This document shows, one piece after another, positions 6,762 to 34,598 of a stretch of DNA of 34,978 bases. The notes beneath the pieces were generated by a model. It saw nothing but the letters and a program-made list of their open reading frames with translations, did not search any database and had not been told where the DNA came from. The stretch lies in NCBI GenBank assembly GCA_017408725.1, contig JAFQUA010000045.1:1-34978 (forward strand), read 5' to 3'. Within the stretch, counting starts at the first letter, position 1. Each line of letters opens with the position of its first letter. Source of the DNA: Oscillospiraceae bacterium. Lineage in GTDB: Bacteria; Bacillota_A; Clostridia; Oscillospirales; Oscillospiraceae. Position numbers and translations under genes: made by a program.

Positions 6762-7063
6762 GACCGGCTCATAACAAGATCGCACACCCACATTTGAACA
6801 AGCCGAATACCCGAAACCTGCGCAGCCAGCTCAGAAACGGCAGCCCCGCGGCACACGAGAAGATCCGCTTAATGCTGCTTGGTTCCCCACCTGACATGGT
6901 TCACGGGATCTCGTTGCGCAAGACCGTTCCTTCAACACCGCTTACGAGGTCCTGACAGTACTCAAGCTTGCCCGGGTGTGGGAATTCATCCCTGCTATAG
7001 CGGATTGCAGGCAACAGGGCACCGCTATCTCCCCGACTAGTGCGACCTTGTTACAAGCCGGTC
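6762..7063 (-). ncRNA. ffs: Signal recognition particle RNA, large Alu-containing form
   Basis: RNA scaffold of the SRP that with Ffh targets membrane proteins. On the minus strand it has the Firmicutes Alu-domain 5' part (GTCGGGGAGATAGCGG-like, then TGCAATCCGCTATAGCAGGG) and the universal domain IV core GTCAGGTGGGGAACC followed by AAGCAGC. The two ends pair over 24 nt (7040-7063 with 6762-6785, differing only at G-U-compatible positions); the mature RNA of about 270 nt may be trimmed inside this helix, as RNase III does in Bacillus. It precedes dnaX, as in B. subtilis. The 3' end also folds as AGCCG-gtca-CGGCT followed by TTATT, a possible weak terminator. It fills most of the gap between acpP and dnaX. 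Confidence 0.93.
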
Positions 7064-16772: not shown

Positions 16773-19297
16773 TTTGCTTCAAACCAGCTCTTTCCTACTT
16801 TTGCCTCCGCCGTCAGCGGCACGGACAAATTCGCCACCTGCTCCATTTCCCGGCTGATCAGCGCAGCTACAGAATCAGCAATCATTTCCGGGCACTCCAC
16901 AATCAGTTCGTCGTGAACCTGCAGCAACAGCTTTGCCTCCGGATAATTCTCCCGCAAGGCCTTGTCCACACGGATCATAGCCATTTTGATCAAGTCCGCT
17001 GCCGTACCCTGAATAGGCGTATTCAAAGCAATCCGCTCTGCTCCGCTGCGGATATTGAAATTACTGGACTTCAGTTCCGGAATATACCGTTTTCTGCCAT
17101 ACATGGTTTCCGTGAAGCCCTTCTCCCGAGCATCTACGATCACCTGCTTCATATAGGTGCCCACGCCCGCATACTTGGCTAAATAGCTTTCGATATAGTC
17201 CTTAGCCTCATACCGACTGACACCGATATCCTCCGCAAGGGAGAATTCAGAAATACCGTAAACGATACCAAAATTAACTGCCTTTGCATGCCGGCGCTGC
17301 AACGCGGTCACCTGCTCCGGTTCCACACCAAAGACCTGCGAAGCTGTCACCGTGTGGATATCCATACCGGATGTGAAAGCATTTCGCATCACCACATCGT
17401 CCGCAATGTGGGCAAGCACACGCAGTTCGATCTGGCTGTAGTCCGCATCCACAAGCACATACCCCGGTTTGGGAACGAACATCTTACGAATCTCTGCACC
17501 CAGATCGGTACGCACCGGAATATTCTGCAGATTGGGTTCTGTAGAAGATAGTCTGCCCGTTGCCGTCACCAGATTCTGGAAGGTGGTGCGGACTCTGCCA
17601 TCGTCACAAACCGCATGCATCAATCCGTCGGCATAAGTGGATTTCAGCTTGGTCAGCATCCGGTAATCCATGATGGCAGGAATAATGGGATGCTTATTCT
17701 TCAGTTTTTCCAAAACATCGGCATTAGTGGAATAGCCGGTCTTTGTTTTCTTCACCGGAGGAAGCCCAAGCTTTTCAAACAGCAATTCGCCCAATTGCTT
17801 GGTAGAATTGATATTGAAGGGCTCTTCACTGCAGCTGTAGATCAGTTTCTCACAATCATCGATCCGCTGCGACAGCATATCGCCAAACTGCTGCAGCTGC
17901 AGCCGGTCAATGGCAATACCCTCTTTTTCCATCCGGTAAAGCACGGAACAAAGCGGAAGTTCAATATCAAAGTAGAGTCCTTCCATCCCCTGCTTCTTTA
18001 GTTCTTCCTGCAATACGGGGTACAGATTCCAAATTGCTTCCGCGCAGGCAGCAGCATCCCCATCATCCACCGTTACGCCAAGGAAATTGGTAGCCAGTTT
18101 GGAAACGGGATAATCTGACTGGGAGGGATTCAAATCATAAGCAGCCAATGCCGTATCGAATACCACTTCCCCAAAGGACAATCCCTGCTCGTTAAGCCCA
18201 TGCATCGCTGTCTTGGAATCGTGGCAGATCAGTTTCCCTGAGGGCAATGTGCCACCCATCTGCACTTCCATAGGTGTCAAGGCACATACGCCTGCTTCCC
18301 ATGCCACGCCTAAAGAGCCGTCGGGTGCAAAATAAACTGCGCAAATCTCTGCTTTTTCCGGCAGCGCATCCACTCTGGGCAGAGAAACCGTGCTCTTTTT
18401 CTCCGGCTTGGGTGCTTCCAGTTCTGCGCCCCGCAGGCCGTACTTGTCGATCAGCCGCACAAATTCCAGTTTCTGGAACAGGTCATAGAGGGCAGGCCTG
18501 TTGTACGGCTGCACAATGGCATCCCGAGGTTCAAAATCAATAGGCGCTTCGCAACGAATGGTCGCGAGGTCATAGGAAAGATAGGCATTGTCCTTGTCCT
18601 TCTCCAGTTTTTCCCGCAGTTTCGGCTTAATGGAAGGATCGTCAAGATTTGCGTAAACGCCATCCAACGAGCCGAATTTCACAAGCAAGTCCGTAGCCGT
18701 CTTGGGACCCACACCGGCGACGCCGGGGATATTGTCGGAAGAATCACCCATCAGTGCCTTCAGATCCACCATTTTCTTCGGCTCAAAGCCATATTCTTCC
18801 TTAAACTTATCGGCAGTATAGAGAGTCGCGGTGGTCTGGCCGGGCTTGGAGATCACAAGCTTCACATGGACATTCTCATCGATCAGCTGCAAGCTGTCCC
18901 GATCACCGGTAACAATCACGCATTCCCATTCATTGTTGGAGCAGATTCTGCCAACCGTACCGATGACATCGTCCGCTTCCCAGCCCTGACATTCATAGAT
19001 GGGAATATTCATTGCCCGCAGGACATCCTTCATCACCGGCATCTGCATAGCAAGTTCTTCGGGCATACCATGGCGGGTGGCTTTATACCCGTCATACTGC
19101 AAGTGGCGGAAGGTAGGGCCGTGAAGGTCAAAGGCGACACAGACCGCTTCCGGCTGCTCTTCCTTTTCCATCTTCTCCAGAATGTTCAAAAAGCCGTAAA
19201 TGGCATGGGTATAAAGCCCCTCCCGTGTGGTAAGGGGCCTGACACCGAAAAACGCTCGGTTGATGACGGAGTTGCCGTCAAGAATCAGCAACTTCAT
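16769..19297 (-). CDS. polA: DNA polymerase I
   Basis: Gap-filling and Okazaki-fragment polymerase with 5' nuclease. 842 residues: the 5'-3' exonuclease/FEN domain (about 1-290; VCVAFDLHGPTFRH, GDSSDNIPGVAGVGPKTA), a central 3'-5' exonuclease-fold region (about 310-460) in which I do not see the usual acidic catalytic set, so probably without proofreading as in many Firmicutes, and the polymerase domain with motif A DADYSQIELRVLAH, motif B RRHAKAVNFGIVYGIS and motif C LLQVHDELIVE. ATG at 19297 follows GGAG by 6 nt. Its start overlaps cysS, its stop overlaps rimI, each by 4 nt. Confidence 0.97.
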   Translation of the reverse strand: MKLLILDGNSVINRAFFGVRPLTTREGLYTHAIYGFLNILEKMEKEEQPEAVCVAFDLHGPTFRHLQYDGYKATRHGMPEELAMQMPVMKDVLRAMNIPIYECQGWEADDVIGTVGRICSNNEWECVIVTGDRDSLQLIDENVHVKLVISKPGQTTATLYTADKFKEEYGFEPKKMVDLKALMGDSSDNIPGVAGVGPKTATDLLVKFGSLDGVYANLDDPSIKPKLREKLEKDKDNAYLSYDLATIRCEAPIDFEPRDAIVQPYNRPALYDLFQKLEFVRLIDKYGLRGAELEAPKPEKKSTVSLPRVDALPEKAEICAVYFAPDGSLGVAWEAGVCALTPMEVQMGGTLPSGKLICHDSKTAMHGLNEQGLSFGEVVFDTALAAYDLNPSQSDYPVSKLATNFLGVTVDDGDAAACAEAIWNLYPVLQEELKKQGMEGLYFDIELPLCSVLYRMEKEGIAIDRLQLQQFGDMLSQRIDDCEKLIYSCSEEPFNINSTKQLGELLFEKLGLPPVKKTKTGYSTNADVLEKLKNKHPIIPAIMDYRMLTKLKSTYADGLMHAVCDDGRVRTTFQNLVTATGRLSSTEPNLQNIPVRTDLGAEIRKMFVPKPGYVLVDADYSQIELRVLAHIADDVVMRNAFTSGMDIHTVTASQVFGVEPEQVTALQRRHAKAVNFGIVYGISEFSLAEDIGVSRYEAKDYIESYLAKYAGVGTYMKQVIVDAREKGFTETMYGRKRYIPELKSSNFNIRSGAERIALNTPIQGTAADLIKMAMIRVDKALRENYPEAKLLLQVHDELIVECPEMIADSVAALISREMEQVANLSVPLTAEAKVGKSWFEAK

Positions 19298-20709
19298 ACT
19301 TTTCTCCACTTTGCGCCCTGAGGTGTGTCGATGATCTCGATACCCCGAGCCTTTAGTTCGTCACGAATCCGGTCCGCTTCTGCCCAATTCTTAGACTTTT
19401 TGGCTTCCGTACGGGCAGCAACCAGTGCGTCGATCTCAGGGTCGGCATTGGCCGCTTCCTCCTCCGCCTGCTTCTTTGCAAGCTTCTGGGCAGCTTCGAT
19501 CAGATTCAAAGAAAGCACCTGATCAAAGTCTTTCAGTGCTGCCAGCTTGGTGGCATCGTTGCACTTTGCCTTCAGAACATCATACACAGCGGTGACTGCC
19601 AGAGATGTGTTAAGGTCGCCATTGAGTGCGTTTGCAAACTTCTCCTTCAGCTGAGCAAGAGCAGCTTCATCCACATCGCCGTCTGCCTTGAAAGTAGCGA
19701 TCTTTGCGATCAGCTTATCGTAAGCAATGACAGCATTATCGAGGTTCTCCCAGCTGAACACCAGGTTGCGGCGGTAGTGGCTCTGGAGGCAGAACAGCCG
19801 GTAAGCCATGGGATCATAGCCCTTGCTCTCCAGCAGAGAAACTGTCAAGAACTCGCCCTTGGACTTGCTCATCTTGCCGGTATCGGTGTTCAAATGGTGA
19901 ACATGGAACCAGTAGTTGCACCACTTGTGACCCAAAAAGCTTTCAGACTGGGCAATTTCATTGGTATGGTGGGGGAATGCATTGTCAATACCGCCGGCAT
20001 GAATATCCAGATCCTCGCCCAGGTGCTTCATAGAAATGCAGGAGCACTCGATATGCCAGCCGGGATATCCAACACCCCAGGGAGAATCCCACTTCAGCGC
20101 CTGATCCTCAAACTTACTCTTGGTAAACCACAGAACGAAGTCATTTTTATTCTTCTTGTTGGTATCCTCTTCTACACCGTCACGGACTCCGGTAGCCAGA
20201 TCTTCCTCGTCATGGTCATTGAACACATAATATTTCTCCAGCGTAGAGGTGTCAAAATACACATTACCGCCGGCAAGGTAGGCACTTCCCTTTTCCAGCA
20301 GTGTCTGCACCATGTGGATATACTCGTTGATGCAGTTGGTGGCAGGCCCGATAACCTCGGGGCGCTTGATGTTCAGCTTGTCGCAATCGGCAAAGAAGGC
20401 CTCGGTATAGAAACGGGCAATGTCCATAACAGACTTATTCTCCCGCTTGGCGCCCTTGAGCATCTTATCCTCACCGGTATCGGCATCACTGGCAAGATGG
20501 CCTACATCGGTGATATTCATAACCCGCTTGACATTATAGCCACTGTAGCGCAGCGCCTTTTCCAGCACATCCTCCATGATATAGGTACGAAGATTGCCGA
20601 TATGGGCATAGTGGTACACCGTAGGTCCGCAGGTGTACATCTTTACCAAGTCAGGATTTCTGGGGGTAAACAGTTCTTTTTTATGGGACAGAGAATTATA
20701 AAGATACAT
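19294..20709 (-). CDS. cysS: Cysteinyl-tRNA synthetase
   Basis: Charges tRNA-Cys. 471 residues, class I. HIGH-type motif YHYAHIGNLRTYI, zinc ligands in YTCGPTVY and WHIECSCISM with the HTNE segment, and TGKMSKSKG as the KMSKS loop. The C-terminal domain has the usual charged region and ends NWAEADRIRDELKARGIEIIDTPQGAKW, complete. The ATG at 20709 has GGAGG about 7-8 nt upstream. A T-box leader precedes it. Three genes follow with 4-nt overlaps. Confidence 0.97.
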   Translation of the reverse strand: MYLYNSLSHKKELFTPRNPDLVKMYTCGPTVYHYAHIGNLRTYIMEDVLEKALRYSGYNVKRVMNITDVGHLASDADTGEDKMLKGAKRENKSVMDIARFYTEAFFADCDKLNIKRPEVIGPATNCINEYIHMVQTLLEKGSAYLAGGNVYFDTSTLEKYYVFNDHDEEDLATGVRDGVEEDTNKKNKNDFVLWFTKSKFEDQALKWDSPWGVGYPGWHIECSCISMKHLGEDLDIHAGGIDNAFPHHTNEIAQSESFLGHKWCNYWFHVHHLNTDTGKMSKSKGEFLTVSLLESKGYDPMAYRLFCLQSHYRRNLVFSWENLDNAVIAYDKLIAKIATFKADGDVDEAALAQLKEKFANALNGDLNTSLAVTAVYDVLKAKCNDATKLAALKDFDQVLSLNLIEAAQKLAKKQAEEEAANADPEIDALVAARTEAKKSKNWAEADRIRDELKARGIEIIDTPQGAKWRKV

Positions 20710-20735
20710 ATTGGGTTCCTCCAATCGTTATTTGC

Positions 20736-20931
20736 AAAAACAAAACGCCCCCTGCACATTCGTACAAGAGGCGGCAAAACCGCGGTTCCACTCTCATTTA
20801 TTCCTTGATATCCACTTTGCCGCTCCCGGACGCACTTTCACAGTCCATACCTGCCGATGTTTCCAGCCATGACACCGGCTCTCTGAAGGTTCGACTTCTG
20901 CTACTCTTTCCGTTCATTGCAGCATATATTC
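20736..20931 (-). promoter_or_regulatory. T-box riboswitch leader, cysteine-type
   Basis: Senses uncharged tRNA-Cys and lets transcription pass the terminator. Minus strand: stem I with AGAGAGCCGG and GGCTGGAAAC; candidate specifier TGC at 20832-20834 in GAAAGTGCGTCC; the conserved T-box core AGAGTGGAACCGCGG at 20780-20794; and a terminator at 20736-20773 (CGCCTCTTGTAC / GTGCAGGGGGCG, 12 bp with G-U pairs, GAAT loop, then TTTTGTTTTT). Fills the gap upstream of cysS. Confidence 0.92.
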
Positions 20932-20977: not shown

Positions 20978-21006
20978 TTGACTTTAAAAGTGCAGAATAC
21001 TATAAT
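20978..21006 (+). promoter_or_regulatory. Promoter of the PDZ-metzincin-MORN gene
   Basis: TTGACT, 17-nt spacer, TATAAT; back to back with the cysS promoter, 12 bp apart. Confidence 0.8.
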
Positions 21007-21035
21007 ATTTGCAAAACCATTTACCGGGAGGTATT

Positions 21036-23264
21036 ATGAGTAATACATCGACGAAGAAAAAATTCAGCTTTTGGAAACTGCTTCTCTGGATCTTCGCAAT
21101 CCTATTTGTGCTGAATGCTGTTACAGACGGCGAATTCACAGACCAACTGTCTTCGCTGTTTGAAGATCATGGTTCCTATGAGCCGGACAATGAGCAAAGG
21201 CCCGGCTATCTTGGTATTTCCATTACGGAAAAGGAAGGTATTACCGGCGGATATATATCCGAAGTGAAACCAGGAGCTCCCGGTGCGGATGCCGGTCTTT
21301 TACCCGGGGACATCATTGTTACAATTGGTAATATCCCCATTAATTCTTATGACGATGTTGTAGCTGAGATCAGCACCTTCTGTGCCAGTGACAGTACCGT
21401 CTTCACGGTACTGCGTAACAACCAATATGTCACGCTTGAGATCTATTTCGGTGTAAAACCACCGGAGGATCCCATAGAGCCTCAGGGCACCGTCCCGCAA
21501 CAGACCGTTCCTGCAGGCACCGGACCCTCCGGCACTATGCCTCCGGTAACCACGCCTCCCGCTGTAGATTGGCTTTCCTCTGTTCCGGCAGAGCTGCGCA
21601 GCCATGTGTATTTGGATTCCCGAGGCAAAGGGTATTGTGAGACACTGACCGGCAATGTCGTCGTTACCGTGATCTTCGTCAGTGACCCGGATGCCGGTTG
21701 GTCAGATGGGGAAATCGAGAACGCAAAAGCGCAATTCCAGACCATCGCTGACCGGATTATCGCTGATGCTGTCAACTACGGCGCACAGGTCAATCTCTCA
21801 TTGCAATACAAAGCCGTGTCCACCTCCGTCAAGATTGTGGACAACGAAACGGATGACTGGGCAGCCAGCGCATTGGCAGCCGCAGGTCTTCCGACACTCA
21901 AAGATTCCAACCCCACCTTAGAAACTACCTACAGAGTCGATGCCGCACCTGTTATCTTCATCGCCAATCACGGTGGAAGAGCATTTGCTTCCTCTAACTA
22001 TCAAAGTGAATACGCGATTCTGTATCAGGACACCCACGCATTTTATCATGAACTTAACCATATCTTTGGTGCAAAGGATTTTTACTACCCTGCTGATGTG
22101 AAAACGCTGACAGAGACCTACCTTCCCAACAGCATTATGGTAAATTCCTCTCAAGGCGTCATGGACGATTTCACCGCATATTTGATCGGTTGGACAGACA
22201 CGCTGACCGACAACGCCTTAGCTTTCCTAAAGGAAACCGCCTACTTGACAAAGGAATATTTGGCAGCGGAACACGAAAAGGAAACTTACACCGGCTATGT
22301 AACTGATTTCACCTACGGCGGCGGCTCATATACCGGTTACCTTGTCAGGGGTGTACACCATGGGCAAGGCAAGTGGATTCGGGATGACGGCACCGTTTGG
22401 GAGGGCACCTTCAATCATGGCTCCTTTACAGGAAAAGGAAATATTATTTACTCCAATGGAAATACCTACGACGGGGAATGGGTCGATGGTCGTTGGCACG
22501 GTACCGGTACCTATAAATGGGCAAACGGGGGTATCTATACCGGCGCATATGTAAACGGCGAACGGACCGGTCAGGGCATTATGGTATACTCCGACGGAGA
22601 TATTTATGAAGGCGATTGGGTAGACGGAAATCGGCACGGAAAAGGCACTTACAAATGGATCGAAGGCAACAGCTATACCGGTGATTTTGTAGAAAATGAG
22701 AGAACTGGGCAGGGTACATGGACCGGCAGTACCGGCAACACCTACACTGGCGGTTTCCTGAACGGAAACTTCCACGGTCAAGGAACTTACAAGTGGGCAA
22801 CCGGCGGCAGCTATACCGGTGGCTATGATAACGGAATGTGCTCCGGGCAAGGCACTATGGTATATTCGGACGGAGCCGTATATGTAGGTCAGTGGTCCGA
22901 CGGAAAGCGAAGCGGACAGGGCACTATCCAATACGCCGACGGTTCTTCCTATGTTGGTCAGTGGGCTGACGGAAAACGAAGCGGACAGGGTACACTCTCT
23001 TACGCAAACGGCAATGTCTACACAGGCCACTGGGTTAATGACACCTGGAATGGTGAAGGCACCTTCACATGGACCAGCGGTGACAAATACACCGGTACAT
23101 TTGTCGATGGCAAACGCCACGGTTACGGCATCTATTACTTCCCCAGCGGAAACCGTTACGAGGGCAACTGGGTAAATGGAGAGCGGCACGGGCAAGGTAC
23201 TATGTACTACGCCAACGGTACATCCCAATCCGGAAACTGGGATAACGGCAAATTTACAGGATAA
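21036..23264 (+). CDS. Membrane-anchored PDZ / metzincin-like protease / MORN-repeat protein
   Basis: Probable cell-surface zinc protease of unreported architecture. 742 residues. Basic N-terminus, one membrane segment (about 13-30) acting as signal anchor; PDZ domain (about 57-145, GYLGISI ... GLLPGDIIVTIGN); Pro/Thr linker (about 146-180); a domain (about 185-400) holding H338-E339-x-x-H342-x-x-G345-x-x-D348 in HELNHIFGAKD, the HExxHxxGxxD pattern of metzincins such as snapalysin, with SIM at 366-368 as a candidate Met-turn; then MORN repeats from 431 to the end. The family of the protease domain is not otherwise recognised. Start chosen for GGGAGG 5-6 nt upstream. Single-gene unit with its own promoter and terminator. 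Confidence 0.85.
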   Translation: MSNTSTKKKFSFWKLLLWIFAILFVLNAVTDGEFTDQLSSLFEDHGSYEPDNEQRPGYLGISITEKEGITGGYISEVKPGAPGADAGLLPGDIIVTIGNIPINSYDDVVAEISTFCASDSTVFTVLRNNQYVTLEIYFGVKPPEDPIEPQGTVPQQTVPAGTGPSGTMPPVTTPPAVDWLSSVPAELRSHVYLDSRGKGYCETLTGNVVVTVIFVSDPDAGWSDGEIENAKAQFQTIADRIIADAVNYGAQVNLSLQYKAVSTSVKIVDNETDDWAASALAAAGLPTLKDSNPTLETTYRVDAAPVIFIANHGGRAFASSNYQSEYAILYQDTHAFYHELNHIFGAKDFYYPADVKTLTETYLPNSIMVNSSQGVMDDFTAYLIGWTDTLTDNALAFLKETAYLTKEYLAAEHEKETYTGYVTDFTYGGGSYTGYLVRGVHHGQGKWIRDDGTVWEGTFNHGSFTGKGNIIYSNGNTYDGEWVDGRWHGTGTYKWANGGIYTGAYVNGERTGQGIMVYSDGDIYEGDWVDGNRHGKGTYKWIEGNSYTGDFVENERTGQGTWTGSTGNTYTGGFLNGNFHGQGTYKWATGGSYTGGYDNGMCSGQGTMVYSDGAVYVGQWSDGKRSGQGTIQYADGSSYVGQWADGKRSGQGTLSYANGNVYTGHWVNDTWNGEGTFTWTSGDKYTGTFVDGKRHGYGIYYFPSGNRYEGNWVNGERHGQGTMYYANGTSQSGNWDNGKFTG
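22326..23261 (+). repeat. MORN repeat array, 13 full units of 69 bp plus a partial one
   Basis: Coding tandem repeat. Each unit is exactly 23 residues (69 nt) with the pattern Y-x-G-x-W/F-x-x-G-x-x-x-G-x-G-T and a second Asp/Asn-Gly turn, with no indels over 13 units; the 14th stops at 13 residues. Units 9 and 10 are nearly identical at protein level (YVGQW.DGKRSGQGT), hinting at recent duplication. In other proteins MORN repeats bind lipids or act as beta-hairpin scaffolds. Confidence 0.93.
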
Positions 23265-23304: not shown

Positions 23305-24504
23305 TCACATTACCTCTTCCCGGTAGCGCTGAATTCCCTTCGCCAGAATGTCCATCGCCCGTTCCAGTTTTTCCTTTTCCAGAACATAGGCGATCCGCAC
23401 CTCATTGATGCCCTTACCCGGGGTTTCGTAAAAGGGCGCACCGGGGGCGAACATGACCGTATCCCCATTATCGTCAAAATTTTGCAGAAGCCACCGCTGG
23501 AATTTGTCCGCATCGTCCACCGGAAGGCTCGCCATGACATAGAAAGCGCCCATAGGCTCTTCCACGATCACACCGGGCATTTCCTGCAGACGGCGTACGA
23601 CCGTATCCCGCCGCTGACGGTAAACTTCCTTGGATTGCCGGAAGAACTGATGGTCTATGCCATAAAGCGCAGCAGCACCGATCTGATCAATGGTGGCAAC
23701 CGACAAGCGGGATTGGCAAAACTTTAAAAGTGCCTGCTGTAGCTCCTTATTCTTTGTAACAACACAGCCAATGCGGGCGCCGCAGGCAGAAAACCGCTTG
23801 GACACGGAGTCGATAAGCACCAGATTGTCATTAATATCGTCGAAACTGGCCATGGTGGGCACACCGAATTCTTCATCATAGCAGAATTCACGGTACACTT
23901 CATCGCAGATCAAAAACAAATCGTGCTTCTTGGCAATATCTGCAATCATCCGCATCTCACTCTTGGTCAGCACAACGCCGGTGGGATTACCGGGATTGGT
24001 GATCAGAATTGCTCGGGTATTCTGGGTAATCAGGCTTTCGATCCGCTTTCTGTCCGCGTATCGGTAGCCTTCCTCTGGACTTGTGGGCAGAGCACGGATC
24101 CGGCCGCCAGCTGCATGGACAAAGGTCGTGTAGTTAGGATAATAGGGCTCCGGAACGATCACTTCCGTGTAAGGATCCAGAATGCTCAAGCAGGTCAGCA
24201 GCAGCGCCTCGCTGCCGCCGGTGGTGACCAGAATATCCTCCGGTTCCAAGGACACCCCGATCTGGGCATAGTAATTCCGGATTGCCTCGATCAAAACCAG
24301 AGCACCGGGAGATTCCGCATAGGCCAAGGTACTGCTGTCAAAATCCCGGACGGCATCATAATACGCCTGAGGCGTTGCGATATCCGGCTGACCGATGTTC
24401 AGATGATATATCGTTTTGCCCGCTTTTTTTGCCTGAACTGCCAACGGATGAAATTTCCGCATTGGCGACGGCTCGCAGCGGTTGGCATTGATGGATACTT
24501 TCAT
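23305..24504 (-). CDS. PLP-dependent aminotransferase, class I/II (AspC-like)
   Basis: Transamination of an amino acid, probably aspartate, alanine or an aromatic one; specificity cannot be read. 399 residues, fold type I. Motifs: HLNIGQPDI near the N-terminus, VTTGGSEALLL, ITNPGNPTGVVL, LICDEVYREF, and DSVSKRFSACGARIG with the Schiff-base lysine; ending INEVRIAYVLEKEKLERAM. ATG at 24504 has AAGGAGG 6 nt upstream. The 3' end of the symporter gene overlaps its first 149 nt in another frame. Confidence 0.92.
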   Translation of the reverse strand: MKVSINANRCEPSPMRKFHPLAVQAKKAGKTIYHLNIGQPDIATPQAYYDAVRDFDSSTLAYAESPGALVLIEAIRNYYAQIGVSLEPEDILVTTGGSEALLLTCLSILDPYTEVIVPEPYYPNYTTFVHAAGGRIRALPTSPEEGYRYADRKRIESLITQNTRAILITNPGNPTGVVLTKSEMRMIADIAKKHDLFLICDEVYREFCYDEEFGVPTMASFDDINDNLVLIDSVSKRFSACGARIGCVVTKNKELQQALLKFCQSRLSVATIDQIGAAALYGIDHQFFRQSKEVYRQRRDTVVRRLQEMPGVIVEEPMGAFYVMASLPVDDADKFQRWLLQNFDDNGDTVMFAPGAPFYETPGKGINEVRIAYVLEKEKLERAMDILAKGIQRYREEVM

Positions 24505-27234: not shown

Positions 27235-27432
27235 TTATCCAACTACCTCATAGCCGGCATCCGTGATGGCTTTCTTCAGTGTTTCCACAGACGCATCTCC
27301 GGTAACCATCACATTCTTTGCCTGCAGATCCACCACTGCATCCACCGTTCCGGGGATCGCCTTGCACACCTGCTCCACCCTTGCCTTGCAGTGGGGGCAC
27401 ATCATGCCTTCCACTTTGATAACCGTTGTCAT
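27235..27432 (-). other. Possible internal start giving a free CopZ-like copper chaperone
   Basis: Within copA, in frame, an ATG at 27432 (M758) is preceded by AAGGAGG with 8-nt spacing, an ideal ribosome site. It would give a 65-residue CopZ/Atx1-like protein (GMMCPHC, ending DAGYEVVG), exactly a complete HMA domain. Either copA yields both a fused and a free chaperone, or a copZ gene was recently fused by loss of a stop codon. Confidence 0.55.
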
Positions 27433-29703
27433 GCTTTTTTCCTCCTTGATCACTTCTTTTTGCACGGGCTGCAGCTCCGGTTTAAACCGCTGCAGCCGCA
27501 ATGCGTTGCTTACAACGAATACGGAGCTTAAGCTCATTGCCGCAGCACCGATCATAGGGCTAAGCTGAATGCCAAAAGGCAGAAACAGCACTCCCGCCGC
27601 AACGGGAACACCGAGGCAATTATAGAAAAACGCCCAGAAAAGGTTTTCCCGAATATTACGGATCGTTGCCTTGCTCAGTTTTACTGCATTGGCAACGCCT
27701 GCAAGAGAGCCGGACATCAGCACAACATCCGCAGATTCCATAGCAATATCCGTTCCTGCACCGATGGCCATTCCCACATCCGCGGTAACCAGTGCAGGGG
27801 CATCATTGATGCCGTCACCAACCATCAAAACACGCTTTCCCTCAGATTGCAGCTTCTTCACCGCATTTGCTTTGTCAGCAGGAAGCACATCGGCGATCAC
27901 TTCATCGATCCCTGCCTTTTGCGCGATTGCTCTTGCCGTCTTTTCATTATCTCCGGTGAGCATAACGACCGACAGACGCTGCCGTTTCATGGCTGCCACA
28001 GCCTCGCGGGAGTCCTCTTTCAGGACATCCGCTGCCGCGATCGCGCCAAGATACCGCCCGTTCTCATCGGCAAAATATAAAGGGGTCTTTCCCGCATCCG
28101 AAAGATCGGAATGGTCCGGAACCGATACTCCCAGTTCCTCCATGAGCCGGCGATTACCGCCATAGCATCGAACGCCGTCAACAGTTCCTGCTACACCTCG
28201 GCCCGGAAGGGTTTCAAAGCTTTCCGCTTCCGTAAAACAGATATTTTCTGCCTTTTCCAAAATGGCCTTCGCAAAGGGATGCTCAGATCGACTTTCCAAT
28301 GCGGCTGCCGTTCGCAGCAGTTCCATCTCCTCCATGTCTCCCGGCAGAATGTCCGTAACTGCAGGCTTGCCGGTAGTCAGCGTTCCGGTCTTATCCAGAA
28401 TCACAGTATCCACACTATGCAAATGCTCCAGTGCCGAACCGTTTTTAAACAAAACACCCAACGATGCTCCCTTGCCGGTACCAACCATGATTGCGACCGG
28501 TGTGGCAAGTCCCAAAGCGCAGGGGCAGGAAATAACCAGAACAGAAATTGCGCAGGTCAGGGAGAATTCCAGTCCCTGTCCTGCAATCGTCCAAGCGGAG
28601 AAAGTAACAAGGGTTATCCCCATCACCACCGGCACAAAGACACCGGCAATTTTATCCGCCAGACGGGCAATGGGTGCCTTGGAGCCGCCTGCCTCCTCCA
28701 CCATGCGGATCACCTGCTGCAAGGTTGTATCCTCTCCCACCTTTTCGGCCCGGAAACGGATATACCCCTCCAAATTGACAGTGGCGGCAGATACCTGCAT
28801 TCCCGGTTCCACTTCCACCGGTACACTTTCACCGGTCAGCGCACTTTGATCAATTGAGGCTCTTCCTTCGACTACCGTTCCGTCTACCGGAATTCTTCCG
28901 CCGGACCGGACAACTACAATATCGCCCACGCGAACCTGCTCGGCAGGAACCATTACTTCCTCGCCGTCACGCAGAACTGTCGCCGTTTCCGGACGCAGAT
29001 CCATCAGCGCCCGGATCGCATCACCGGTTTTTCCCTTAGCCCGGGTCTCCAGAAATTTGCCCAATGTGATCAGTGTCAGGATCATAGCCGCGGATTCAAA
29101 ATAAAGATTTTCGCTGTAAAACTGTACCGTATCCCAGTCGCCGTGTCCCATCGCATAAGCCATACGAAACAGCGCCACAATGCCATAGATCAGTGCCGCG
29201 CCGGAGCCAACCGCAATGAGACTGTCCATATTCGGACTTCGGTGCCACAAGGATTTTAATCCTCTTGTATAATATACTCGATTCAAAAACACTACCGGTA
29301 ATGTAAGAAGAAACTGCAGCAAGCCGGCCATCAGTGCGTTTTCCTTGCCATGATACCAGTGGGGGGCGGGAATACCCACCATATGTCCCATAGTAAAATA
29401 CATCAGAATAACAAGAAACACCGCAGACCAAATGATCCTTGTTTTCATTTCTTTTATGGAGTTATCCGGCTTTTCACCGGCTTCCGTTTTCTTTTCTCCG
29501 GCAAGGGCAGCACCGTAACCTGCGTCTTGCACTGCGGCAATGATTGGTTGCGCAACAGCTTCTGTTTTCGCCTCCACCACCATGCTTCCAGCTAAAAGGT
29601 TTACTTCCACAGCTTCCACATCCGCTACTGCCTTTGTGACCTTCTCGACTCTTGCAGAACAGGCGGCACAGGTCATGCCGGTAACCGTTAATTTCAGTTT
29701 CAA
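27235..29703 (-). CDS. copA: Copper-exporting P1B-type ATPase with heavy-metal domains at both ends
   Basis: Exports Cu(I) across the membrane using ATP. 822 residues. N-terminal HMA domain with C12-x-x-C15 (GMTCAACSARV); eight predicted membrane segments; metal-channel C393-P-C395 (SCPCALGLATP); phosphorylated D437 (DKTGT); SEHPFAKA; GDGINDAPAL. After the last membrane pair comes a linker (about 735-757) and a second HMA domain with C769-x-x-C772 (MMCPHCKARV). CPC plus CxxC support copper (or silver). The start is taken as TTG at 29703, since GGAGGTG lies 6 nt before it; a GTG five codons earlier would lie on that site. Divergent from hxlR. Confidence 0.93.
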   Translation of the reverse strand: MKLKLTVTGMTCAACSARVEKVTKAVADVEAVEVNLLAGSMVVEAKTEAVAQPIIAAVQDAGYGAALAGEKKTEAGEKPDNSIKEMKTRIIWSAVFLVILMYFTMGHMVGIPAPHWYHGKENALMAGLLQFLLTLPVVFLNRVYYTRGLKSLWHRSPNMDSLIAVGSGAALIYGIVALFRMAYAMGHGDWDTVQFYSENLYFESAAMILTLITLGKFLETRAKGKTGDAIRALMDLRPETATVLRDGEEVMVPAEQVRVGDIVVVRSGGRIPVDGTVVEGRASIDQSALTGESVPVEVEPGMQVSAATVNLEGYIRFRAEKVGEDTTLQQVIRMVEEAGGSKAPIARLADKIAGVFVPVVMGITLVTFSAWTIAGQGLEFSLTCAISVLVISCPCALGLATPVAIMVGTGKGASLGVLFKNGSALEHLHSVDTVILDKTGTLTTGKPAVTDILPGDMEEMELLRTAAALESRSEHPFAKAILEKAENICFTEAESFETLPGRGVAGTVDGVRCYGGNRRLMEELGVSVPDHSDLSDAGKTPLYFADENGRYLGAIAAADVLKEDSREAVAAMKRQRLSVVMLTGDNEKTARAIAQKAGIDEVIADVLPADKANAVKKLQSEGKRVLMVGDGINDAPALVTADVGMAIGAGTDIAMESADVVLMSGSLAGVANAVKLSKATIRNIRENLFWAFFYNCLGVPVAAGVLFLPFGIQLSPMIGAAAMSLSSVFVVSNALRLQRFKPELQPVQKEVIKEEKSMTTVIKVEGMMCPHCKARVEQVCKAIPGTVDAVVDLQAKNVMVTGDASVETLKKAITDAGYEVVG

Positions 29704-29755
29704 TTTAACACCTCCCACAGAGGAAATATTGACAGAATTCCTTCTTTATGTTACC

Positions 29756-33317: not shown

Positions 33318-34550
33318 TTAGAAGATATCCAGTTTCGACAGGTTTTCGAATGTTTCTTGCTTCTTGCGTTCCGTTGCCTCGGCATAAATGTCCATCGTTG
33401 TTTCAATGTTCCGACGACCCATAATTGCCTGAATCACTTTCAGATTTGGTTCGTGTTCACAAAGCCTGGTACAAAAAGTATGCCTGAGATGATGGCAAGA
33501 GAAGTCCGGAAGGATGATTGGATTGCGGTGCTCTTTCTTAGCCTGTACAATCTCTTCCGAATTGTAGTTATGGGCGATTCGTTTGATCGTCCGGTTGATG
33601 GTCTGCGGGTTGGGCACACCACCGTACCGGTTCACAAATACAAAACCGCTCATTCCATCAATAACGGTTTGGTTAAAGCCGCTCTCTTCTTGTTCTTCCC
33701 GCTCGAACATAAAGGCATCGTATACCATGTCGAGCATTGGAACTGTTCGAATGCCAGCCTCGGTCTTCGGTTTAGAGATTTTCTGTACAGAGGTTCGGGA
33801 TTCGCCCACCGGGTAATATACCATGCTATGGTTGATATGGATGACTCTGTTCTCAAAGTCTAGGTCTTCCCATCTCAGGCCCAAAGCTTCGCCAATTCGG
33901 CATCCAGTACCGAGCAGAACGGTGAACATAGGCCACCAATGGTAATACACCGGGTGCTCCGCTATGTAATCCATGAATGCTCGTTGCTGTTCAATGGTCA
34001 ATGCTCTGCGCACGCCCCTGGTTTTATCTGTTTCCTTGGCAATCTCCTTCATCACGCCATCGGAGGGATTCTTACGAATCACTTCATCCCGAACCGCCAG
34101 CTGAAATGTCGGATGCAGCAGAGTGTTGATATTGTCCAGCGTACTTAACGCCAGTCCTTCTACGTTGAGCAAATAGAGATAAAACTGCAGGACATCGGAG
34201 TACTTGATTTCCGCAATCTTCTTACATCCAAATGTATCCCGGACATACTTGTCGTACATATAAATATAGTTACTACGAGTAGTGTCCCTCAATTTGAATT
34301 TAGTGGAAAGGTATCGATCAAAGGTGTCATTGACCGTAGCCTTGCCAGCCACATACAGATCAAGTCCATCTAACTGATCCCTTACCAGTTTCTTCTCTTT
34401 CTCACGAAGCTCAGCCAAATCATTCGCATATATATACTTACGACGACCCAACGGATCGGTATAGGTATACATATAGCGCTTATCCGAAGCTCTCTGAACC
34501 TCACCCTTTCGAAGTGCTCTTCCACGGTCGTCTTTACGTGCTTTTGCCAT
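33318..34550 (-). CDS. int: Tyrosine recombinase / site-specific integrase (Tn916/phage type)
   Basis: Integrates and excises a mobile element. 410 residues: N-terminal arm-binding domain (about 1-65, KRYMYTYTDPLGRRKYIYANDLAELREKE), SAM-like core-binding domain (about 73-170), catalytic domain with R218 (GTGCRIGEALGL), K262 (SKPKTEAG), H353-x-x-R356 (HHLRHTF) and nucleophile Y389 (TTMDIYAEAT). The third position, usually His in LGH, is R379 (MGRRN). Start at 34550 is fixed by AAAGGAGG about 7 nt upstream; 16 more codons are open upstream. Full length, no visible damage. Lies 48 nt after a small ribbon-helix-helix gene on the same strand. Confidence 0.93.
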   Translation of the reverse strand: MAKARKDDRGRALRKGEVQRASDKRYMYTYTDPLGRRKYIYANDLAELREKEKKLVRDQLDGLDLYVAGKATVNDTFDRYLSTKFKLRDTTRSNYIYMYDKYVRDTFGCKKIAEIKYSDVLQFYLYLLNVEGLALSTLDNINTLLHPTFQLAVRDEVIRKNPSDGVMKEIAKETDKTRGVRRALTIEQQRAFMDYIAEHPVYYHWWPMFTVLLGTGCRIGEALGLRWEDLDFENRVIHINHSMVYYPVGESRTSVQKISKPKTEAGIRTVPMLDMVYDAFMFEREEQEESGFNQTVIDGMSGFVFVNRYGGVPNPQTINRTIKRIAHNYNSEEIVQAKKEHRNPIILPDFSCHHLRHTFCTRLCEHEPNLKVIQAIMGRRNIETTMDIYAEATERKKQETFENLSKLDIF

Positions 34551-34598
34551 GTTGATTCCTCCTTTACATAACGATGATAAAGAAGGATTCCATAGCAC

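What the first reader, a model, noticed from the sequence alone, without database searches (positions are those of the whole stretch)
21036..23264. Cell-surface PDZ + metzincin-like protease + MORN-array protein
One protein joins a signal anchor, a PDZ domain, an HExxHxxGxxD zinc site (HELNHIFGAKD, residues 338-348, with SIM 18-20 residues later as candidate Met-turn) and about 13.5 MORN repeats. HExxHxxGxxD with Asp as third ligand is the metzincin variant known from snapalysins. I know of no described enzyme with this domain order. A surface protease whose PDZ selects C-termini and whose MORN rod reaches lipid or wall would be a new kind of system. The motif and repeats are seen directly; activity and localisation are inferred.
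Basis: partly seen in the sequence, partly recalled or inferred. Interest (0 to 1): 0.78.

Follow-up and report, generated by a model that had tools for sequence, protein, structure and literature searches.

The report
Membrane-anchored protease with MORN rod
A bacterium, probably from an animal gut, carries a membrane-anchored protein that joins a peptide-gripping PDZ domain, a previously unlabelled zinc-protease domain and a long MORN-repeat rod; many relatives keep the same zinc site, so it is very probably a real but uncharacterised type of surface protease.

Summary
ORF 21036-23264 (+, 742 aa) has a signal anchor, an HtrA-type PDZ (57-136), a P/T-rich linker, a zinc site HELNHIFGAKDFY (338-350), a candidate Met-turn Met368 and 13 MORN units in exact 23-residue register. 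The middle domain (about 185-412) matches no Pfam or NCBIfam model above cut-off. HExxHxxGxxDxY is kept in 59/59 of the closest set (query included) and 256/258 overall; Met368 is in 59/59. The leading strand pairings give sheet order II-I-III-V, all parallel, with a helix between I and II: the published metzincin upper subdomain, though other zincins may share it. Sequence comparison alone proves no kinship: similarity to M6 is explained by the zinc motif, and no snapalysin (M7) match was found. Twelve of 40 chosen distant loci, all from a Bacteroidales genome set, have a broken zinc site, so the family also holds pseudo-proteases. PDZ is exchangeable; MORN as lipid reader is unsupported. Best reading: an undescribed metzincin-type ecto-protease family, here as PDZ-protease-MORN.

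The parts
20978..21006 (+). promoter-like site TTGACT-17-TATAAT, 11 of 12 consensus matches
   Evidence: 5 promoter-like sites found in the region; shuffles mean 3.0
21026..21031 (+). ribosome-binding site GGGAGG, 4 bases before ATG 21036
   Evidence: sequence
21036..23264 (+). whole gene, 742 aa (P0001)
21066..21122 (+). signal anchor, residues 11-29 (N-in inferred from KKK before it)
   Evidence: hydropathy 2.28
21204..21443 (+). HtrA-type PDZ domain, residues 57-136, carboxylate-loop-like GYLGI
   Evidence: Pfam PDZ_2 E 8.4e-11; loop alignment
21456..21587 (+). P/T-rich linker, residues 141-184
   Evidence: 12 Pro and 6 Thr in 44 residues
21588..22271 (+). metzincin-like zinc-protease domain, residues about 185-412
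   Evidence: family of 258 proteins; coevolution
22047..22079 (+). zinc site HELNHIFGAKD, residues 338-348 (Tyr350 follows)
   Evidence: 59/59; 256/258
22137..22139 (+). Met368, candidate Met-turn methionine
   Evidence: 59/59; SxM in 254 of 256
22287..23261 (+). MORN array, residues 418-742, 13 full units of 23 residues plus partial ends
   Evidence: Pfam E 1.7e-64; register

Best explanation
An N-terminally anchored ecto-protease of a monoderm (Clostridia-like) bacterium. The middle domain is a metzincin-type zinc endopeptidase: H338, H342 and D348 hold zinc, E339 activates water, Met368 is the Met-turn and Tyr350 may be a tyrosine switch. PDZ and MORN are polypeptide-gripping modules on either side of the catalytic domain: the PDZ near the membrane takes C-termini or hydrophobic tails, and the MORN rod (about 11-12 nm if it scales with solved MORN structures) offers an aromatic groove or a dimer interface reaching away from the cell. 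Together they capture and present extracellular protein substrates. Shown by sequence: domains, register, conservation. Supported by computation: the sheet topology. Inferred: zinc binding, activity, orientation, substrate capture. The natural substrate is unknown; dietary, host or neighbour-cell proteins in the gut are the likeliest.
For: HExxHxxGxxDxY and Met368 in 59 of 59 of the closest set, whose 58 relatives are 33-79% identical to the query in the matched part. Motif in 256 of 258 family proteins; SxM in 254 of those 256, 20 residues after the Asp in 166 of the 254. In 29 very diverse members (mean column identity 22%) the invariant columns are H, E, H, G, A, D, Y, M and G. Coevolution: strand I(207-)/II(253-) parallel, offset 46, rank 1; I(208-)/III(305-) parallel, offset 97, rank 2; III(307-)/V(327-) parallel, offset 20, rank 6 of 41,820 overlapping pairings. 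The active-site helix packs on strand III (A303-F344 z 9.1, A304-L340 z 5.0). Of 300 column-order shuffles 2 reached both top values. This is the published metzincin order II-I-III-V with a backing helix between I and II (PMC12237041 passages); that paper also reports, for IgAse, a Tyr two residues after the Asp as a possible tyrosine switch. The lowest Pfam E-values among diverse members, all below cut-off, are metzincin families: Reprolysin_5 0.0009 and Reprolysin_3 0.002. P0226 joins three cell-wall-binding CWB2 domains to this protease domain. The 27 of 27 PDZ carriers by Pfam annotation have a hydrophobic N-terminus and an intact motif.
Against: No structure prediction could be run. Profile comparison with M6 (probability 84%) is matched by 5 of 40 column-permuted nulls, so it rests on the motif alone; M6 itself scores 63-68% against the unrelated zincins M78 and M48. 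The best solved-structure hit, 4on1 (E 0.002), fell to 0.036 with a wider profile, level with a chance GTPase hit at 0.033. In the 20-member scans unrelated families score as well as or better than the metzincin ones. The first coevolution value alone is reached by 17 of 300 shuffles; strand III/V is weaker in half-samples (26-394 pairings score higher); strand IV was not resolved; other zincins may share this sheet. A Bacteroidales branch has lost the zinc site. No activity data exist.
Confidence: 0.7

Rival explanations
1. A zincin outside the metzincins (an Asp-zincin or mini-zincin-like protease): same zinc ligands, but Met368 is not a structural Met-turn.
For: HExxHxxGxxD is also the Asp-zincin and mini-zincin motif, without a Met-turn (PMC3890501 passages). 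The coevolved sheet is not unique to metzincins.
Against: A Met follows at conserved spacing (SxM in 254 of 256). About 60 domain residues follow the motif, with a crudely predicted C-terminal helix, unlike mini-zincins. No DUF1025/PF06262 match is listed in the Pfam scans.
Confidence: 0.15
2. A pseudo-protease: the fold is kept as a peptide-binding domain and the window protein has little or no catalysis.
For: 12 of 40 fetched distant loci match the family over its length but have a broken motif; P0154 and P0264 are natural variants.
Against: In the window's own branch the catalytic Glu and all three ligands are kept in 59 of 59 and in 27 of 27 PDZ carriers.
Confidence: 0.1
3. A zinc or iron enzyme with HExxH that is not a peptidase (for example a peptide-modifying oxygenase).
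For: HEXXH enzymes with oxidative chemistry on peptides exist (PMC12636437, title and start of abstract in a search listing).
Against: The full HExxHxxGxxD...Met pattern, the strand order and export favour a peptidase; no conserved neighbour genes were found.
Confidence: 0.05

Closest known systems
Thuringilysins / immune inhibitor A (M6 metzincins)
   Same: Asp as third zinc ligand (PMC12237041 passages); fetched M6 sequences show D-x-Y after the motif, a following Met and in several a later GW-like segment
   Different: No PF05547 match listed; TIGR03296 hits 2 of 20 members, best E 0.068. Profile similarity is no better than motif-preserving nulls
Snapalysins (M7 metzincins)
   Same: HExxHxxGxxD and a following Met (PMC3890501 and PMC12237041 passages)
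   Different: Their Met is about ten residues after the Asp against 20 here; no Pfam M7 match in the scans; no M7 sequence was available for direct comparison
Adamalysin/reprolysin-type metzincins (M12) and fragilysin-type MPII (PDB 4on1; type name recalled)
   Same: Best sub-threshold profile hits; possible helix between strands II and III
   Different: Third ligand is His in the 13 M12 sequences fetched; hits are below the curated cut-off and the 4on1 hit is not robust
Igalysins (M64)
   Same: Metzincins with Asp as third ligand, one of them from the human gut (PMC12237041 passages)
   Different: One extra residue before the Gly in the motif; hhalign probability 18%
M60-like/PF13402 mucin-degrading peptidases
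   Same: A zinc-peptidase family spread among gut microbes with surface features and accessory domains (PMC3267712, abstract)
   Different: Different family: 1 of 71 members hits PF13402, E 0.095; its partners are glycan-binding modules, here PDZ, MORN or CWB2
HtrA/DegP/DegS proteases
   Same: Protease plus the same kind of PDZ
   Different: HtrA are serine proteases with the PDZ after the catalytic domain (recalled; PDZ matches lie late in those models); here a metal site follows the PDZ and MORN is added

Membership tests
metzincin clan MA(M) | zinc motif HExxHxxG/NxxH/D | tested here: met
   338-348; 59/59, 89/90 and 108/109 in the three protein sets; lost in 12 of 40 distant loci
metzincin clan MA(M) | Met-turn methionine after the motif | tested here: met
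   sequence level only: Met368 in 59/59, SxM in 254 of 256; geometry not seen
metzincin clan MA(M) | upper-subdomain strands II-I-III-V parallel, backing helix between I and II | tested here: met
   by coevolution only; pattern as in PMC12237041; other zincins may share it
metzincin clan MA(M) | antiparallel upper-rim strand IV | tested here: inconclusive
   weak couplings only
metzincin clan MA(M) | three-dimensional superposition on a known catalytic domain | not testable with these tools
metzincin clan MA(M) | zinc binding and proteolysis | not testable with these tools
   needs protein
snapalysin M7 | match to the M7 family model | tested here: not met
   no M7 hit; one search found no M7 sequence to compare with directly
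thuringilysin M6 | match to the M6 family models | tested here: not met
   TIGR03296 2 of 20, best E 0.068; no PF05547 hit listed; permuted nulls as good
reprolysin/adamalysin M12 | score above the Pfam cut-off and His as third ligand | tested here: not met
   15.9 bits against cut-off 27; Asp instead of His
igalysin M64 | motif HExxHxxxGxxD | tested here: not met
   one residue fewer here
mini-zincin M94 | motif close to the C-terminus, no Met-turn | tested here: not met
   about 60 domain residues follow, with a conserved Met
PDZ domain (HtrA type) | Pfam PDZ above cut-off and carboxylate-binding-loop pattern | tested here: met
   aromatic-hydrophobic-G-hydrophobic loop seen in most of the 27 aligned carriers; peptide binding not tested
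MORN repeat protein | tandem 23-residue repeats with GxG | tested here: met

The most novel reading that the evidence does not exclude
A so far unnamed family of the metzincin clan (Asp third ligand, D-x-Y, SxM), found in Bacillota, Bacteroidota and Chloroflexi records, many from animal guts, with exported and signal-less members, a Bacteroidales pseudo-protease branch and exchangeable PDZ, MORN and CWB2 modules. In this architecture two peptide-binding modules, PDZ and a 13-unit MORN groove, flank the protease, making a surface capture-and-cut machine for which I found no described counterpart.
Probability: 0.5. Interest if true: 0.68.

Novelty: new variant of a known kind. Interest (0 to 1): 0.58.

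Why it matters
It would add an unlabelled zinc-peptidase family to gut bacteria, where such enzymes shape protein breakdown and host contact, and give bacterial MORN arrays a concrete job next to an enzyme. The conserved motif, the dispensable PDZ, the varying MORN number and the natural pseudo-protease branch make function directly testable. The case also warns that a protein search by shared exact words (256 of 258 intact) showed almost nothing of a degenerate branch that a profile search of genomes brought up.

Tried and rejected
Rejected: chance motif (shuffles). Plasmid carriage: no match in the collection of 72,556 plasmid records. Phage carriage: matches to the MORN part only, in 2 of 50,697 phage records, and none of 15 pattern hits in viral contigs encodes a relative. 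Conserved operon: cross-comparison of the flanks of the window and 24 loci found no partner gene beyond generic families and pairs of loci. M6 kinship by profile comparison: 32% with 2 M6 rows, 84% with 12 rows, but column-permuted nulls scored as well, and comparing only the parts before or after the motif left no signal to any of five peptidase families. These yardstick sets were rough (13 M12, 12 M6, 12 M64, 17 M78, 20 M48 rows; loci without a plain HExxH were dropped, and a few rows may be wrong frames). PDB kinship to 4on1: not robust. Single-sequence genome scan: 129 pattern hits, no relative. Direct M7 comparison: nothing rang in 81 genomes or 14 controls, so no sequence to compare. Paper searches: eight of ten had MORN among their terms. 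'MORN repeat' with 'metzincin' gave 0 papers; two searches listed all 7 and all 3 papers found; some searches showed only the top of longer lists. No title or abstract start shown was about a bacterial MORN metalloprotease. This covers an open-licence library only, not MEROPS or subscription journals.

Full report
The gene. ORF 21036-23264 on the + strand encodes 742 aa. It has a promoter-like site at 20978-21006 and GGGAGG at 21026-21031. Its neighbours lie on the other strand: upstream a gene that I read as cysS (19294-20724, recalled from its sequence), with a T-box leader signal at 20764-20926 on the minus strand (60.3 bits, E 8e-13, below the gathering score of 93); downstream a PLP aminotransferase. 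It is therefore a stand-alone gene.

Anatomy. Residues 11-29 form a hydrophobic anchor after KKK. Residues 57-136 are a PDZ domain of the HtrA type (Pfam PDZ_2 E 8.4e-11; the best NCBIfam partial hits are MamE and HtrA/DegP-like proteases). Residues 141-184 are a linker with 12 Pro and 6 Thr. Residues 418-742 are MORN repeats, with GxG anchors at exact 23-residue spacing from 443 to 719. Residues 185-412 match no Pfam or NCBIfam model above cut-off; the only Pfam hit on the isolated piece is Reprolysin_5 at E 0.016.

The family. A search with residues 1-415 gave 67 proteins (only the 8000 candidates sharing most words were scored). P0001-P0059, the query among them, are the family; P0060-P0067 are serine proteases or other PDZ proteins and were dropped. 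Two profile searches gave 90 and 109 further proteins, 258 in all; one search lists the best 120 of 148. A genome scan found 24 loci: titles name Oscillospiraceae, other Clostridia, Lachnospiraceae, Ruminococcaceae, Prevotella/Prevotellaceae, Chloroflexi/Anaerolineaceae, Bacteroidales and the isolate Massiliimalia massiliensis; 10 of 24 titles name a ruminant gut site. Spread is patchy: with alignment A2, 4 of 300 genomes of one family and 1 of 398 of the phylum, both counts including the seed genome. With the wider profile A3, 57 of 384 genomes in the order of G001 and 67 of 384 in the order of G009 match at E 0.001; by my count of the listings 48 and 32 of these have E below 1e-10, and the weak rest are mostly short matches around the motif. 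Two of 12 genomes hold three copies on one contig.

The zinc site. In the 59 proteins of the first set, query included, H338, E339, H342, G345, D348, Y350 and M368 are invariant, with W222, A245, R315, T380, A381, G385, W386, F397 and L398. Of all 258, 256 keep HExxH-x-[FYV]-G-x-x-D-x-Y; P0154 has lost the site and P0264 has Gln for the first His. SxM follows in 254 of the 256, 20 residues after the Asp in 166 of the 254, and a TAYLIGW-like segment in 252 of the 256. In 29 and 71 very diverse members the invariant columns are H, E, H, G, A, D, Y, M and a late G. PMC12237041 (passages) gives the metzincin marks: HExxHxxG/NxxH/D with Asp in snapalysins and thuringilysins, a Met-turn and a C-terminal helix; in IgAse a Tyr two residues after the Asp may be a tyrosine switch. 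The domain fits these at sequence level.

Against: broken members. That count comes from searches that need shared exact words. Of 40 loci that I chose from profile hits in genomes, 28 keep HExxHxxGxxD and 12 do not: 20 of 20 from the order of G001 keep it, 8 of 20 from the order of G009, whose seed locus is a Prevotellaceae record. The 12 match the family model nearly end to end (E 1e-28 to 1e-42, one of them in two pieces) and show sites such as AHNFLH or AQEIMH; by eye their N-termini look exported. In the first genome scan 23 of 24 loci keep the motif. The family thus has a pseudo-protease branch, distant from the window's protein.

Sequence kinship tests. hhalign of the family (145 rows) against fetched M6, M12, M64, M78 and M48 sets gave 84, 51, 18, 11 and 4%. 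But permuting all columns outside the motif gave scores as high (5 of 40 at or above the real one), comparing only the parts before or after the motif gave nothing for any family, and M6 itself scores 63-68% against M78 and M48. The PDB hit 4on1 (E 0.002) weakened to 0.036 with 71 sequences, level with a chance GTPase hit. So sequence alone says 'zincin motif, nearest to metzincins', no more. Among 71 members the most frequent sub-threshold Pfam hits are Reprolysin_5 (5, best 0.0009) and Reprolysin_3 (5, best 0.002); in the 20-member scans Reprolysin_5 is again the most frequent (6 of 20), but unrelated families reach lower E-values.

A fold test without a model. Mean-field coevolution on 254 sequences (effective number 186) gave, out of 41,820 overlapping five-residue strand pairings, the top two and the sixth as parallel pairs: 207/253 (offset 46), 208/305 (offset 97), 307/327 (offset 20). 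This is the order II-I-III-V. The helix 224-248 lies between I and II, and helix 333-345, holding HExxH, packs on strand III (A303-F344 z 9.1, A304-L340 z 5.0). Both top values together were reached by 2 of 300 column-order shuffles, the first alone by 17 of 300. In six half-samples 0-30 pairings scored above I/III, 1-93 above I/II and 26-394 above III/V. With 28 or 40 more sequences 0, 4 and 7-8 pairings scored above I/II, I/III and III/V. Adding the broken members brings up H338-D348 as a coupled pair (z 5.1), as expected of two ligands lost together, though one clade drives it. PMC12237041 gives this sheet for metzincins (II up, I up, III up, V up, IV down). Strand IV is not resolved here, and other zincins may share the core. 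The crude secondary structure broadly agrees.

Modules. On a quick tree of 159 domains PDZ needs 5 changes, MORN 12, and export (crude hydropathy) 27. P0012, next to the window protein on that tree, has anchor, linker, protease and MORN but no PDZ. MORN number is 9-14 in 18 of 19 close or PDZ-bearing relatives listed and 0 in the 19th, the short P0022. P0226 has three CWB2 cell-wall domains before the protease. Members without a visible signal sequence exist. The protease domain is the constant part; the rest is exchangeable.

Mechanism. I propose a surface protease that holds polypeptides with PDZ and MORN while the zinc site cuts. PMC7725318 (passages) reports MORN proteins that form dimers, measure about 80 A per nine repeats and did not bind liposomes, though one co-purified with PE and bound lipid chains; it cites a MORN4 structure with a peptide held in the aromatic groove. 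The array here is slightly acidic (22 K+R, 29 D+E), which does not favour lipid binding. Thirteen repeats would reach about 11-12 nm (inference). Substrate and activity are unknown.

Novelty. Ten searches of an open-licence library showed no described enzyme with this order in the titles and abstract starts listed, the sharpest being 'MORN repeat' with 'metzincin', 0 papers. Subscription papers and MEROPS were not searched. The clan is known; the family and its PDZ-protease-MORN format appear undescribed, so I call it a new variant of a known kind.

Noticed in passing
L160, L162-L166, L168, L169, L171-L174 (Bacteroidales-set loci): A branch of the same domain family with a degenerate zinc site but full-length similarity and exported-looking N-termini: natural pseudo-proteases.
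   Followed up: partly
window 20764-20926 (-): T-box leader signal (60.3 bits, E 8e-13, below the Rfam gathering score) upstream of the gene read as cysS.
   Followed up: partly
window 6780-7045 (-): Bacterial large signal recognition particle RNA (193.4 bits).
   Followed up: no
window 27235-29718 (-): Copper-type P-type ATPase with a CopZ-like metallochaperone domain at its C-terminus (residues 766-825) as well as a copper-binding domain at its N-terminus.
   Followed up: no
window 24356-24504: The end of the AgcS-like carrier ORF overlaps the start of the aminotransferase ORF by 149 bases on the same strand in another frame; the carrier match ends at residue 448 of 510.
   Followed up: no
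window 33318-34598 (-): XerC/D-like tyrosine recombinase, below the family cut-offs, near the window's end.
   Followed up: no
P0226: Three CWB2 cell-wall-binding domains precede the same protease domain.
   Followed up: partly
L005 and L019: In both loci the gene sits near a shared block of eight consecutive ORFs that look like housekeeping genes, one of the longest shared neighbourhoods seen.
   Followed up: no
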